Positions 49,775 to 53,654 of a DNA stretch of 64,000 nt are shown piece after piece. The notes beneath the pieces were generated by a model. It was not told the origin of the DNA. It saw only the letters and a program-made list of their open reading frames with translations, and searched no databases. Positions within the stretch are counted from its first letter, which is position 1. Every line of letters starts with the position of its first letter. The translations under genes and the position numbers were made by a program. The DNA is from Sphingobacteriaceae bacterium (GTDB lineage: Bacteria; Bacteroidota; Bacteroidia; Sphingobacteriales; Sphingobacteriaceae), in NCBI GenBank assembly GCA_947460875.1, contig CANHGR010000002.1, positions 124,001 through 188,000 of the forward strand, read 5' to 3'.

Positions 49775-50659
49775 TTAATGTAGTGGTCTTTGTTTCACGA
49801 TACCGCCCTTGGTATCATTTATTGCACTCATTACGATAAAAGCCTTCCGATCTATTGTATCAATCTCTTCTCTTAATTTTGAGACTTCAAGGCGCGTAAC
49901 GACTGTAAATATGATATCCATATTCTTCTTGTGGCCAGTGCTTCCAAAACCGCCCTCTCCTTTATAAATTGTTACTCCTCGTCCTAGTTTATTAATTATG
50001 GCTTCGCGCACTTCCTTGCTTTTCGTAGAAACGATGGTTACCCCGGTATACTCTTCAATACCTTGAATGATAAAATCTACCGTTTTCGATGCCGACAGAT
50101 AGGTTAGAATCGAATAGAGAGCAGTTTCTATGCTAAGAATAAATGCCGCACAAATAAAGATTAGGAGATTGATTAGAAGAATAATGTCTCCAATACTCAG
50201 AATACTTTTACGGTTGATGTATAAGGCCATAATTTCGGTGCCGTCGAGTACGCAGCCACCACGCATCGCTAGTCCAATCCCGGCGCCAAGAAAGAATCCG
50301 CCGAAGATCGAAATCAGAAGTTTATCGTTAGTAATCGTCGGAAAATCAACAAAATAGATCGTAGTCGCGAGCAAAATAACTGCAAGTAAGGTAGTTACAG
50401 CAAAATTTCTACCTATTTGTCTGCTCCCCATAATTATAAAAGGGACATTTAATACAACTAACCAAACAGATACCGGGACTTTCGTAACATGGTTCATAAG
50501 AAGAGATACTCCAGTAACTCCTCCATCTATAAATCCGTTAGGCACCAAGAAGCCTTTTAATCCGAATGCTGCTAACAGCACGCCAGCCGATACGAATAAA
50601 AGTTTTATAATTTTCTTTCGAATGACTACTACTCGCCGATAATTTTTGTTGAATAACAT
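49775..50659 (-). CDS. YitT-family membrane protein (DUF2179)
   Basis: A 294-residue inner-membrane protein with five to six N-terminal transmembrane segments (about 13-190) and a C-terminal soluble DUF2179 domain (about 205-290; TGVTIVSTKSKEVREAIINK, GRGVTIYKGEGGFGSTGHKK and TVVTRLEVSKLREEI). The motif LRGCVLDGTEIMAL near 129-143 is typical of the family. Function unresolved; a transport or sensing role is assumed for the family. Its stop codon lies 1 bp from the convergent SDR stop. Confidence 0.87.
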   Translation of the reverse strand: MLFNKNYRRVVVIRKKIIKLLFVSAGVLLAAFGLKGFLVPNGFIDGGVTGVSLLMNHVTKVPVSVWLVVLNVPFIIMGSRQIGRNFAVTTLLAVILLATTIYFVDFPTITNDKLLISIFGGFFLGAGIGLAMRGGCVLDGTEIMALYINRKSILSIGDIILLINLLIFICAAFILSIETALYSILTYLSASKTVDFIIQGIEEYTGVTIVSTKSKEVREAIINKLGRGVTIYKGEGGFGSTGHKKNMDIIFTVVTRLEVSKLREEIDTIDRKAFIVMSAINDTKGGIVKQRPLH

Positions 50660-50682: not shown

Positions 50683-50713
50683 TTGCAGTTGAAGAAAAGA
50701 ATATTGATATTTG
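50683..50713 (+). promoter_or_regulatory. trp operon promoter
   Basis: TTG (50683-50685), a 20-bp spacer, then GATATTTG (50706-50713), which differs from TAnnTTTG only at the first base. The predicted start of transcription is about 5 nt before the leader-peptide ATG at 50724. Confidence 0.45.
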
Positions 50714-50723
50714 CCCCACTATT

Positions 50724-50789
50724 ATGAAATATCACTCTTTAAATACAGCCTGGTGGTGGCGTTCGAAATATCGATTGCAATCTAACTAA
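50724..50789 (+). CDS. trpL: trp leader peptide with three tandem Trp codons
   Basis: A 21-residue open frame: MKYHSLNTAWWWRSKYRLQSN. Three consecutive TGG codons lie at 50751-50759, a very rare codon run, in the short leader of a tryptophan operon. A ribosome short of charged tRNA-Trp would stall there. It would then leave free GCAATCTAA (50777-50785), just before the stop codon, which can pair with the attenuator stem. Spacing, Trp codons and the following terminator match classical ribosome-mediated attenuation as in Enterobacteria. It is below the size normally reported by gene callers. Confidence 0.88.
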   Translation: MKYHSLNTAWWWRSKYRLQSN

Positions 50790-50852
50790 TAGGTTTTTAA
50801 AATATTTATAACTAAGATTAGGGTTGCTTTTACAGCAGCCCTTTTTATTTTT
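50777..50852 (+). promoter_or_regulatory. trp attenuator: antiterminator and intrinsic terminator
   Basis: Terminator: GGGTTGCT (50821-50828) pairs with AGCAGCCC (50834-50841) over 8 bp with one wobble, 5-nt loop, then TTTTTATTTTT (50842-50852), 8 bp before the trpD ATG. Antiterminator: GCAATCTAA (50777-50785) pairs with TTAGGGTTGC (50818-50827), with two wobbles and one bulge. The two foldings share GGGTTGC and exclude each other, so transcription into trpD depends on ribosome position on the leader. Confidence 0.85.
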
Positions 50853-50860
50853 AAATTATA

Positions 50861-51847
50861 ATGAAGGATATTCTAAATCATCTGTTCGATCATAAGTCAT
50901 TCAACAGAATGGAAGCTAAGGTTATTTTAACCAATATTGCTTCTGGCAAATACAACCATTCTCAAATAGCTGCATTTATGTCAGTTTATTGTATGAGAAG
51001 TATTACAGTTGAGGAACTCGAAGGATTTTCCGATGCCATGATTGAGCTTTGCCTGAAACCGGGATTAGAGGATTATGAACTTATTGATCTTTGCGGAACT
51101 GGTGGAGATGGAAAAGATACATTTAATATATCAACGCTCGCTTCTTTTGTTGTGGCTGGGGCTGGATATAAAGTAGCAAAGCATGGAAATTATGGGGTGT
51201 CTTCTGGTTGTGGTTCTTCGAATGTAATGGAGCATCTAGGGTACACGTTTACTAATTCATCTGATGTACTGAGGCGAAGCCTAGATACAGCAAATATCTG
51301 CTTTTTGCATGCACCATTATTTCACCCGGCGATGAAAACCGTTGCGCCGATCAGAAAAGAATTGGGGGTAAAAACATTTTTCAACATGCTTGGTCCGATG
51401 GTGAATCCGGCTCAGCCCTCAAGTCAGATGGCTGGGGTATTTAGCCTTGAATTAGCCCGACTATACCATTATCTCTATCAAAAATCGAGTAAAAAATACA
51501 TGATCGTTCATGCCTTAGAAGGATATGATGAGATTTCACTCACTGGGCCATTTAAGATTTTCTCTAATTCCGGAGAGCAACTTTATCAGGTGAAAGATCT
51601 TGGATTTGAAGCCATCAAAGCCGCTACTATTGGCGGCGGAAGCACCGTTCAGGACTCAGCGGATATTTTTATTTCTGTTTTAAATGGTGAAAGTACGTTT
51701 GAACAGCGCAGCGTAGTACTTTGTAATGCTGCAATGGCGATCAAAACGATACATGCTGAAAGTAGTTTTGAACAATGTTTTGCAGAAGCTGAAGAGTCTT
51801 TACTCAGCAAACGGGCACTTAAAAGCTTTAGCGCATTGCTGTCATGA
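50861..51847 (+). CDS. trpD: Anthranilate phosphoribosyltransferase
   Basis: Transfers the phosphoribosyl group of PRPP to anthranilate, second step of tryptophan synthesis. The 328-residue protein has the PRPP/Mg signature DLCGTGGDGKDTFNISTLAS near 76-95, KHGNYGVSSGCGSSNVMEHLG near 107-127 and an intact C-terminal region (NMLGPMVNPAQPS near 176-188). It is a stand-alone TrpD with no TrpG fused. It is the first structural gene after the attenuator and overlaps trpF by 4 bp (ATGA). Confidence 0.95.
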   Translation: MKDILNHLFDHKSFNRMEAKVILTNIASGKYNHSQIAAFMSVYCMRSITVEELEGFSDAMIELCLKPGLEDYELIDLCGTGGDGKDTFNISTLASFVVAGAGYKVAKHGNYGVSSGCGSSNVMEHLGYTFTNSSDVLRRSLDTANICFLHAPLFHPAMKTVAPIRKELGVKTFFNMLGPMVNPAQPSSQMAGVFSLELARLYHYLYQKSSKKYMIVHALEGYDEISLTGPFKIFSNSGEQLYQVKDLGFEAIKAATIGGGSTVQDSADIFISVLNGESTFEQRSVVLCNAAMAIKTIHAESSFEQCFAEAEESLLSKRALKSFSALLS

Positions 51848-52476
51848 AAATTAAAATCTGTGGAATGAGACTGCCTGTTAATATCAAAGAAGTCGCATTG
51901 CTACAGCCTAATTATATGGGTTTGATATTTTATCGATCTTCAAAACGATATGTTAAAGATCTGGATCCTGAAATATTGAAGGAATTACCGGCAAGTATCA
52001 AGTTAACCGGGGTATTTGTTAATGTTGAATTTGACGAAATCACAAGAATAATTGAAAAATACGGTTTAAAAGCTGTTCAACTGCATGGCGAAGAAACTGC
52101 TGATTTATGCCAAAAATTGAGATATCATGGGGTAGAGGTAATTAAAGCGTTTGGTGTCGATGAGCATTTCGACTTTAAAACCTTAGATAAATATGACGGT
52201 AAAGTAGATCATTATTTGTTTGATACAAAAACGGCATTGTTTGGTGGATCAGGAATGCAATTTGACTGGAAATTATTGGATCGATACACTTATAAAACTA
52301 CTTTTTTTCTTAGTGGAGGAATAGGGCCTGATCAAATTAAGGAGTTGAAAAATATAAAAGACGATCGGCTGTATGCCATTGATCTCAATAGTAAGTTTGA
52401 GCTTGAACCTGGTGTAAAAGACACCTGTAAGGTAAATCAAGCAATTAATGATGTACGACTAATAGATACGCAATGA
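51844..52476 (+). CDS. trpF: Phosphoribosylanthranilate isomerase
   Basis: TIM-barrel enzyme (210 aa) converting N-(5-phosphoribosyl)anthranilate to the carboxyphenylamino-deoxyribulose phosphate. Landmarks: [15 protein letters not shown] (4-18) with the catalytic Cys, [12 protein letters not shown] near 27-38, AVQLHGEE near 77-84, and the phosphate-binding [19 protein letters not shown] near 126-144 and [11 protein letters not shown] near 155-165. The catalytic Asp is in DTKTA. Start and stop each overlap a neighbour by 4 bp (ATGA), so translation is coupled. Confidence 0.94.
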
Positions 52477-53654
52477 GTTACCATGTAAATGAAAAAGGGT
52501 ACTACGGTAATTTTGGGGGTGCTTATATCCCCGAGATGTTATACCCTAATGTAGAAGATTTAAGAATAAAATATCTTGAAGTGATAGGGGATCCAGTATT
52601 TCAGAAGGAATTTCAACAACTTTTAAAAGACTATGTCGGGCGTCCTTCACCTTTGTTTCTAGCAGAAAGGCTATCTGAAAAATATGGAACGACTATCTAT
52701 TTGAAAAGAGAAGATCTGAACCACACAGGTGCCCATAAGATAAATAATACAGTCGGACAAATATTGTTTGCTGAGCGTTTAGGTAAGAAGCGAATTATTG
52801 CAGAGACAGGAGCGGGGCAGCATGGAGTCGCTACTGCGACGGTTTGTGCGCTTAAAGGACTTGAATGTGTTATTTATATGGGTGAAGTAGATATAAAGAG
52901 GCAGGCACCGAATGTTGCGAGGATGAAAATGATGGGTGCAACTGTGGTTCCTGCGATGTCGGGAAGTAAAACACTCAAAGATGCTACGAATGAAGCAATG
53001 CGCGACTGGATAAATAATCCGGTCGATACACATTATATTATTGGATCGGTGGTAGGACCACATCCATATCCTGATATGGTTGCTCGATTCCAATCTGTGA
53101 TATCAGAAGAGACACGCTGGCAATTAAAAGAAAAAACCGGCAAAGAGAGTCCGGATTATGTCTTAGCATGTGTTGGGGGAGGTAGTAACGCCGCAGGTAT
53201 GTTTTATCATTTTCTAGATGATGTAGACACCCGATTAATTGCTGTTGAAGCGGCAGGTAAAGGCGTGAATTCCGGTGAATCAGCAGCTACTACGGTACTT
53301 GGAAAAGAAGGAGTTCTGCATGGAAGCCGCTCTCTCGTGATGCAAACTGAGGATGGCCAAGTGGTTGAGCCGTATTCCATTTCCGCCGGCTTAGACTACC
53401 CCGGAATCGGTCCACAGCACGCTTTTTTACATACTGAACACCGTGCAGAGTATGTTAGTGCAACGGATGATGAAGCAATGCAGGCAGGTTTACTTCTTGC
53501 TCGCCTCGAAGGGATTATCCCCGCTATCGAAACCGCACATGCTATCGCTCATCTTGAGAAAATGGTTTTTAACGGCGACGAGACGGTGGTAATTTGTCTT
53601 TCCGGCAGGGGCGATAAGGATCTGGAGAATTATATGCAATATTTCGATTTTTAA
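52473..53654 (+). CDS. trpB: Tryptophan synthase beta subunit
   Basis: PLP enzyme (393 aa) that condenses indole with serine. The PLP lysine is in [12 protein letters not shown] near 85-96, the substrate Glu in [11 protein letters not shown] near 109-119, and the phosphate-binding [13 protein letters not shown] near 231-243. [20 protein letters not shown] near 283-302 is the COMM-domain/allosteric region that contacts TrpA. All catalytic residues are present. It is the canonical TrpB1 type, in operon with trpA 86 bp downstream. Confidence 0.97.

What the first reader, a model, noticed from the sequence alone, without database searches (positions are those of the whole stretch)
50683..50861. 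Complete tryptophan attenuator with a WWW leader peptide in a Bacteroidota genome
Seen: a 21-codon frame with three consecutive Trp codons, a terminator hairpin with T tract ending 8 bp before trpD, and an alternative stem that uses the same bases (GGGTTGC). When a ribosome stalls at 50751-50759 the antiterminator strand 50777-50785 stays free; when it reaches the stop at 50787 it covers that strand. This is the full logic of ribosome-mediated attenuation. Known: the mechanism is best studied in Proteobacteria. Most Bacteroidota mRNAs lack Shine-Dalgarno sequences, and this leader would be nearly leaderless (transcription start about 5 nt before the ATG), so ribosome loading on trpL would differ from the E. 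coli case.
Basis: partly seen in the sequence, partly recalled or inferred. Interest (0 to 1): 0.85.

Follow-up and report, generated by a model that had tools for sequence, protein, structure and literature searches.

The report
Tryptophan attenuator before Bacteroidota trpD
This stretch is a genuine tryptophan-sensing switch, in which a ribosome pausing on three tryptophan codons decides whether the tryptophan genes are transcribed; it works by the textbook E. coli logic, and here it proves to be conserved across most of the phylum Bacteroidota, whose ribosomes use unusual start signals.

Summary
Window 50724-50789 encodes MKYHSLNTAWWWRSKYRLQSN. An intrinsic terminator (50820-50842 plus a T tract) ends 8 nt before trpD of a trpDFBA operon, and an 11-bp antiterminator (50777-50790 with 50817-50827) competes with it. 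That completes the classical 1:2, 2:3, 3:4 set. Comparative evidence is strong. 86 of 88 trpD upstream regions from Sphingobacteriaceae carry a leader with at least two Trp codons. Stems 1:2 and 3:4 show two-sided changes at 12 of 19 pairs. Stem 2:3 passes shuffle and swap tests, and masked folding gives the predicted switch. A -7 promoter box lies 2-13 nt before the leader ATG in about 80% of trpD leaders, so near-leaderless transcripts are conserved. In this family the pathway is split, and trpEGC has its own Trp attenuator, also in this genome (WCW). Intact trpEGDCFBA operons elsewhere in the phylum carry one before trpE. No Rfam family matches. Bacteroidota amino-acid leader peptides were only hinted at in the papers I could read. 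Verdict: a confirmed, classical ribosome-mediated trp attenuator; a new member of a known kind with unexpectedly wide distribution. Expression and translation are untested.

The parts
50683..50713 (+). Predicted Bacteroidota-type promoter: TTG(CA) at 50683-50687 and -7 box GATATTTG at 50706-50713; transcription start expected about 50717-50720
   Evidence: Consensus match; the same box (mostly CATATTTG) lies 2-13 nt before the leader ATG in 66 of 81 trpD leaders versus 40 of 375 other upstream regions. Not measured.
50724..50789 (+). Leader peptide ORF (trpL), MKYHSLNTAWWWRSKYRLQSN*
   Evidence: an equivalent Trp-rich ORF lies upstream of 86 of 88 trpD genes examined
50751..50759 (+). Three consecutive Trp codons (sensor)
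   Evidence: WWW leaders in 71 of 88 trpD upstream regions, 0 of 4400 shuffles
50759..50778 (+). Anti-antiterminator hairpin, stem 1:2 (GCGTTCGA-AATA-TCGATTGC), overlaps the start of region 2
   Evidence: the equivalent stem has changes on both sides at 7 of 9 pairs in 60 relatives
50777..50790 (+). Region 2, 5' strand of the antiterminator
   Evidence: in 170 leaders region 2 starts at a median of 17 nt after the last Trp codon and pairs with its own region 3 at z about -2.4
50817..50827 (+). Region 3, shared by antiterminator (with 50777-50790) and terminator
50820..50842 (+). Intrinsic terminator hairpin, stem 3:4
   Evidence: z = -4.2; the equivalent stem has two-sided changes at 5 of 10 pairs and 96% of cells paired in 60 relatives
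50842..50852 (+). T tract of the terminator
50861..51847 (+). trpD, first gene of the regulated operon
   Evidence: TIGR01245, 304 bits
51844..52476 (+). trpF
   Evidence: Phosphoribosylanthranilate isomerase models are the best matches, 158.8 bits, below the model cut-off
52473..53654 (+). trpB
   Evidence: TIGR00263, 577.8 bits
53741..54508 (+). trpA
   Evidence: TIGR00262, 235 bits

Best explanation
This is a ribosome-mediated transcriptional attenuator of the trpDFBA operon. RNA polymerase starts a few nucleotides before the leader ATG, and a ribosome loads without a Shine-Dalgarno sequence on a nearly leaderless 5' end. If charged tRNA-Trp is scarce, it stalls on the three Trp codons. It then covers region 1 and stops hairpin 1:2 from forming, so region 2 pairs with region 3 (antiterminator) and transcription reads into trpD. 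If tryptophan is plentiful, the ribosome runs to the stop codon and masks region 2; region 3 pairs with region 4 and transcription terminates 8-9 nt before trpD. With no ribosome, hairpin 1:2 holds region 2 and the terminator is again favoured. Shown by sequence and comparison: ORF, Trp codons, all three stems, their spacing and conservation, and the operon. Inferred: the start site, translation of the leader, and the response to tryptophan.
For: Elements present. Conservation of leader plus terminator upstream of trpD in Sphingobacteriaceae and upstream of trpE elsewhere in Bacteroidota. Covariation: stems 1:2 and 3:4 together have 12 of 19 pairs with two-sided changes, covariation score 0.291 versus 0.192 +/- 0.008 shuffled, 0 of 500 shuffles as high. 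Stem 2:3: in 170 leaders native pairing averages -12.3 kcal/mol versus about -8 with strands swapped between lineages, mean z -2.4 versus shuffles; 84% of cells paired versus 26-57% when slid. Spacing: region 2 begins at a median of 17 nt after the last Trp codon (5-95%: 11-21), just beyond a stalled ribosome's edge, while the stop codon varies freely. Masked folding: probability that region 3 pairs upstream before region 4 is made is 0.69 with a ribosome on the Trp codons versus 0.22 at the stop; shuffled control 0.44 versus 0.36. The window itself gives the antiterminator when stalled, nothing at the stop, and hairpin 1:2 when unoccupied.
Against: No expression, start-site, ribosome-profiling or termination data were available. 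Within the trpD set stem 2:3 shows little two-sided covariation because region 3 hardly varies, so its support rests on conservation, swaps and shuffles. For the window alone the 2:3 pairing is only moderately better than shuffles (z about -1.1 to -1.5). At equilibrium the terminator wins in every state, so the switch must be kinetic, as in E. coli.
Confidence: 0.94

Rival explanations
1. The short ORF encodes a functional small protein that acts in trans, and the hairpin is a plain terminator.
For: Leader peptides can act in trans in some bacteria (peTrpL of Sinorhizobium meliloti, PMC7298713, listed).
Against: Outside the Trp run the peptides share little (for example LNNNWWWLNE, VNKNWWWHNAIA, YTIWWWQMFKH), while distances and RNA stems are kept. 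Lengths and C-termini vary freely. A secondary role in trans is not excluded.
Confidence: 0.03
2. The terminator belongs to the neighbouring gene and the WWW frame is incidental.
For: Terminators often lie between genes.
Against: The upstream gene (49775-50659) is on the minus strand and transcribed away, so it needs no terminator here. WWW leaders with a terminator recur upstream of trpD or trpE in dozens of genera and almost nowhere else in the same loci.
Confidence: 0.01
3. A different Trp-sensing leader RNA: a T-box, a TRAP-type site or a Trp riboswitch.
For: These control trp genes in other phyla (established knowledge).
Against: No Rfam family matches the leader at gathering thresholds; only two tRNAs were found in the window. 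The conserved core is a translatable Trp-codon run at a ribosome-sized distance from region 2. TRAP sites were not scanned for separately.
Confidence: 0.02

Closest known systems
E. coli trp operon attenuator (trpL; Rfam Trp_leader RF00513)
   Same: Short leader ORF with adjacent Trp codons; regions 1-4 with stems 1:2, 2:3, 3:4; intrinsic terminator just before the first structural gene; default termination expected without translation.
   Different: No Shine-Dalgarno sequence and a predicted 5' end only 4-7 nt before the ATG; three Trp codons rather than two; controls trpDFBA of a split pathway, with a second attenuator on trpEGC; no match to any Rfam model at gathering threshold. The E. coli side of this comparison is from established knowledge.
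Leader-peptide attenuators suspected in Flavobacterium psychrophilum amino-acid operons (PMC9723704)
   Same: Same phylum; structured 5' regions with leader peptides upstream of amino-acid operons; pheA and hisG 5' elements named as conserved in the family.
   Different: The main text says 'strong clues' and does not name trp or give a four-stem analysis; its supplement was not readable here.
Actinobacterial trp leader attenuators (Corynebacterium glutamicum, Streptomyces venezuelae; cited in PMC4833913)
   Same: Trp-codon leader peptide with terminator before trpE, outside Proteobacteria.
   Different: Different phylum; no sequence relation tested.

Membership tests
Ribosome-mediated amino-acid attenuator (trp leader class) | Short leader ORF rich in codons of the regulated amino acid | tested here: met
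   WWW in a 21-codon ORF; conserved in relatives, absent from shuffles
Ribosome-mediated amino-acid attenuator (trp leader class) | Intrinsic terminator between leader ORF and the first biosynthetic gene | tested here: met
   50820-50842 plus T tract; covarying in relatives
Ribosome-mediated amino-acid attenuator (trp leader class) | Antiterminator that shares region 3 with the terminator and is mutually exclusive with it | tested here: met
   50777-50790 with 50817-50827; swap and shuffle tests on 170 leaders
Ribosome-mediated amino-acid attenuator (trp leader class) | Anti-antiterminator stem 1:2 adjacent to the sensor codons | tested here: met
   50759-50778; two-sided changes at 7 of 9 pairs
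Ribosome-mediated amino-acid attenuator (trp leader class) | Spacing that frees region 2 on stalling at the sensor codons and hides it at the stop codon | tested here: met
   Median 17 nt from last Trp codon to region 2; masked folding 0.69 versus 0.22
Ribosome-mediated amino-acid attenuator (trp leader class) | Leader is transcribed with the operon and translated | tested here: inconclusive
   Conserved promoter box upstream of the ORF; no transcript or ribosome data
Ribosome-mediated amino-acid attenuator (trp leader class) | Readthrough rises when charged tRNA-Trp falls | not testable with these tools
   Needs an experiment
Rfam Trp_leader (RF00513) | Match to the covariance model at or above gathering score | tested here: not met
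   No match in the window other than two tRNAs; homology to the Rfam family is therefore not claimed, only the same kind of mechanism
T-box riboswitch | Match to the Rfam T-box model | tested here: not met
   No match

The most novel reading that the evidence does not exclude
Across Bacteroidota, trp attenuation runs on nearly leaderless leader transcripts: the promoter is held within a few nucleotides of the leader ATG so that the first ribosome loads on the emerging 5' end without a Shine-Dalgarno sequence. When the operon split in the Sphingobacteriaceae ancestor, each half kept or gained its own four-stem Trp attenuator, giving one pathway two matched sensors.
Probability: 0.5. Interest if true: 0.6.

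Novelty: new member of a known kind. Interest (0 to 1): 0.45.

Why it matters
It extends the best-known model of transcription-translation coupling to a phylum whose ribosomes are reported not to recognise Shine-Dalgarno sequences (PMC9976891, abstract), and shows it is widespread there, not an isolated case. Attenuation needs a leading ribosome close behind RNA polymerase, so conserved attenuators imply close coupling in Bacteroidota and give a ready reporter to test it. Each genome of this family carries two independent leaders for one pathway, a natural comparison. A 2010 survey stated that, to its authors' knowledge, leader-peptide systems had not been shown outside Proteobacteria and Actinobacteria (PMC2965389), and no Rfam family covers this one, so annotation of trp leaders in this phylum is missing.

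Tried and rejected
Rfam scan of the window: no leader family. Own-genome pattern TTTG...ATG...TGGTGG: 72 matches, and as I read them only the trpD leader has the in-frame leader form. Covariance model R1 in the own genome: one strong hit, the window element; others at E > 0.1. R1 across the class: strong hits in the family, plausible ones upstream of trpE in Flavobacteriaceae-like genomes, but most weak hits are probably generic terminators, so the 40-of-119 tally was not used. A WWW frame before trpA in L029 is out of frame inside trpB. A third attenuator between trpB and trpA was looked for in the window and not seen. Three likely relevant papers (Merino 2008, Xie 2003, Lopatovskaya 2010) are not held, so a prior description of Bacteroidota trp leaders cannot be excluded. 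Structure prediction was not needed.

Full report
The observation. The sequence at 50683-50861 contains what was described. There is a 21-codon frame with TGG TGG TGG at 50751-50759 and an intrinsic terminator at 50820-50842 with a T tract. An alternative strand in the second half of the ORF can pair with the left arm of the terminator. The downstream genes are trpD, trpF, trpB and trpA. The upstream gene is divergent (49775-50659, minus strand), so the terminator does not serve it. In the same genome (2.21 Mb, 26 contigs) trpE, trpG and trpC lie elsewhere as a trpEGC cluster.

Anatomy. Folding gives three stems. 3:4 is the terminator, z = -4.2. 2:3 is an antiterminator of 11 pairs, 50777-50782/50822-50827 plus 50786-50790/50817-50821. 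This is the full four-region layout of a classical attenuator.

Chance and conservation. I collected 88 trpD upstream regions from Sphingobacteriaceae. A leader ORF with at least two Trp codons (usually WWW) is present in 83 within 350 nt, and in three more Pedobacter genomes further upstream beyond inserted repeats. One further genome has a single-Trp version and one has none. Shuffled regions gave 0 of 4400 WWW leaders. About 860 other upstream regions of the same loci gave one, which is out of frame inside trpB. In Cytophagales and Flavobacteriales with an intact trpEGDCFBA order, the same kind of leader precedes trpE. A survey of trpE across the GTDB class and phylum found leaders with a Trp run in most families sampled, including Cyclobacteriaceae-like and Flavobacteriaceae-like families and several families outside the class. 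None was seen in a few others (f10, f13, f15, f26, f53, f80, f82 in the tool's labels).

Two attenuators in one genome. All 30 Sphingobacteriaceae trpE upstream regions examined carry their own Trp leader and, where read in full, a different terminator (CCCGRCG type), including this genome: MTLTIYTNKWCWPANVLRNGIIC, TGG TGC TGG, L004 2362-2433. The split pathway is therefore under two separate Trp-codon leaders.

Tests of the mechanism. On 60 aligned trpD leaders, stems 1:2 and 3:4 are paired in 88% of cells (26-49% when slid), with two-sided changes at 12 of 19 pairs and a covariation score above all 500 shuffles. Stem 2:3 is paired in 84% of cells (26-57% slid) but varies little inside this set. 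Across 170 leaders of both kinds, native region 2 pairs with its own region 3 at -12.3 kcal/mol on average, against about -8 for swaps between lineages and a mean z of -2.4 against shuffles. Region 2 starts at a median of 17 nt after the last Trp codon, whereas the stop codon may lie before or after region 2. That is what a ribosome-footprint mechanism requires. Folding with a masked ribosome gives region 3 paired upstream with probability 0.69 when stalled and 0.22 at the stop. The shuffled control is 0.44 and 0.36, and the contrast is stable for footprints of 9-18 nt. In the window the three states give antiterminator, no upstream pairing, and hairpin 1:2. For this one leader the statistics are weaker than for the family (2:3 z about -1.1 to -1.5), and the equilibrium fold always favours the terminator, so the switch is kinetic.

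The nearly leaderless 5' end. A box close to the Bacteroidota -7 element lies 2-13 nt before the leader ATG in 66 of 81 trpD leaders and 45 of 87 trpE leaders, against 40 of 375 ordinary upstream regions. A TTG element lies about 20 nt further up in the window. In F. psychrophilum the median 5' UTR is 24 nt and 5.5% of mRNAs are leaderless (PMC9723704).

Relation to known systems. It works like E. coli trpL in every tested respect. It is not a member of any Rfam family at gathering threshold. A 2010 paper stated that leader-peptide systems were not known outside Proteobacteria and Actinobacteria (PMC2965389). A 2021 paper reported strong clues for them in Flavobacterium amino-acid operons (PMC9723704). 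Three older trp-operon papers could not be read, so novelty of the taxonomic statement is moderate and provisional.

Verdict. Interest 0.45.

Noticed in passing
L004 2362-2492 (G000:C9, upstream of trpE): A second Trp attenuator in the same genome before trpEGC: leader MTLTIYTNKWCWPANVLRNGIIC (TGG TGC TGG) and terminator AACCCGGCG...CGTCGGGTT with a T run; the same kind of leader is present before trpE in all 30 relatives examined.
   Followed up: yes
L209, about 35-134 nt upstream of the hisG match (G000:C1:259562): A His-rich leader-like ORF, MPVVFRHHAHLHHHRKSDENMICLFLRETVSIK, precedes hisG in the same genome; no clear intrinsic terminator follows it, so its mode of action is unclear.
   Followed up: partly
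L075 7647-7911 (Fulvivirga marina), also L079 and L083 (Rufibacter): Two Trp-rich leader ORFs in tandem upstream of one trpE. In Fulvivirga each WWW leader has its own terminator, apparently two attenuators of the same specificity in series.
   Followed up: partly
L020, L024, L025, L040 (Pedobacter), between terminator and trpD: 100-350 nt of repeat-like intergenic sequence inserted between the attenuator and trpD, moving the terminator far from the gene while the leader stays intact.
   Followed up: no
L070 (Sphingobacteriaceae MAG), upstream of trpD: The one trpD upstream region of the set with no Trp leader or recognisable attenuator.
   Followed up: no
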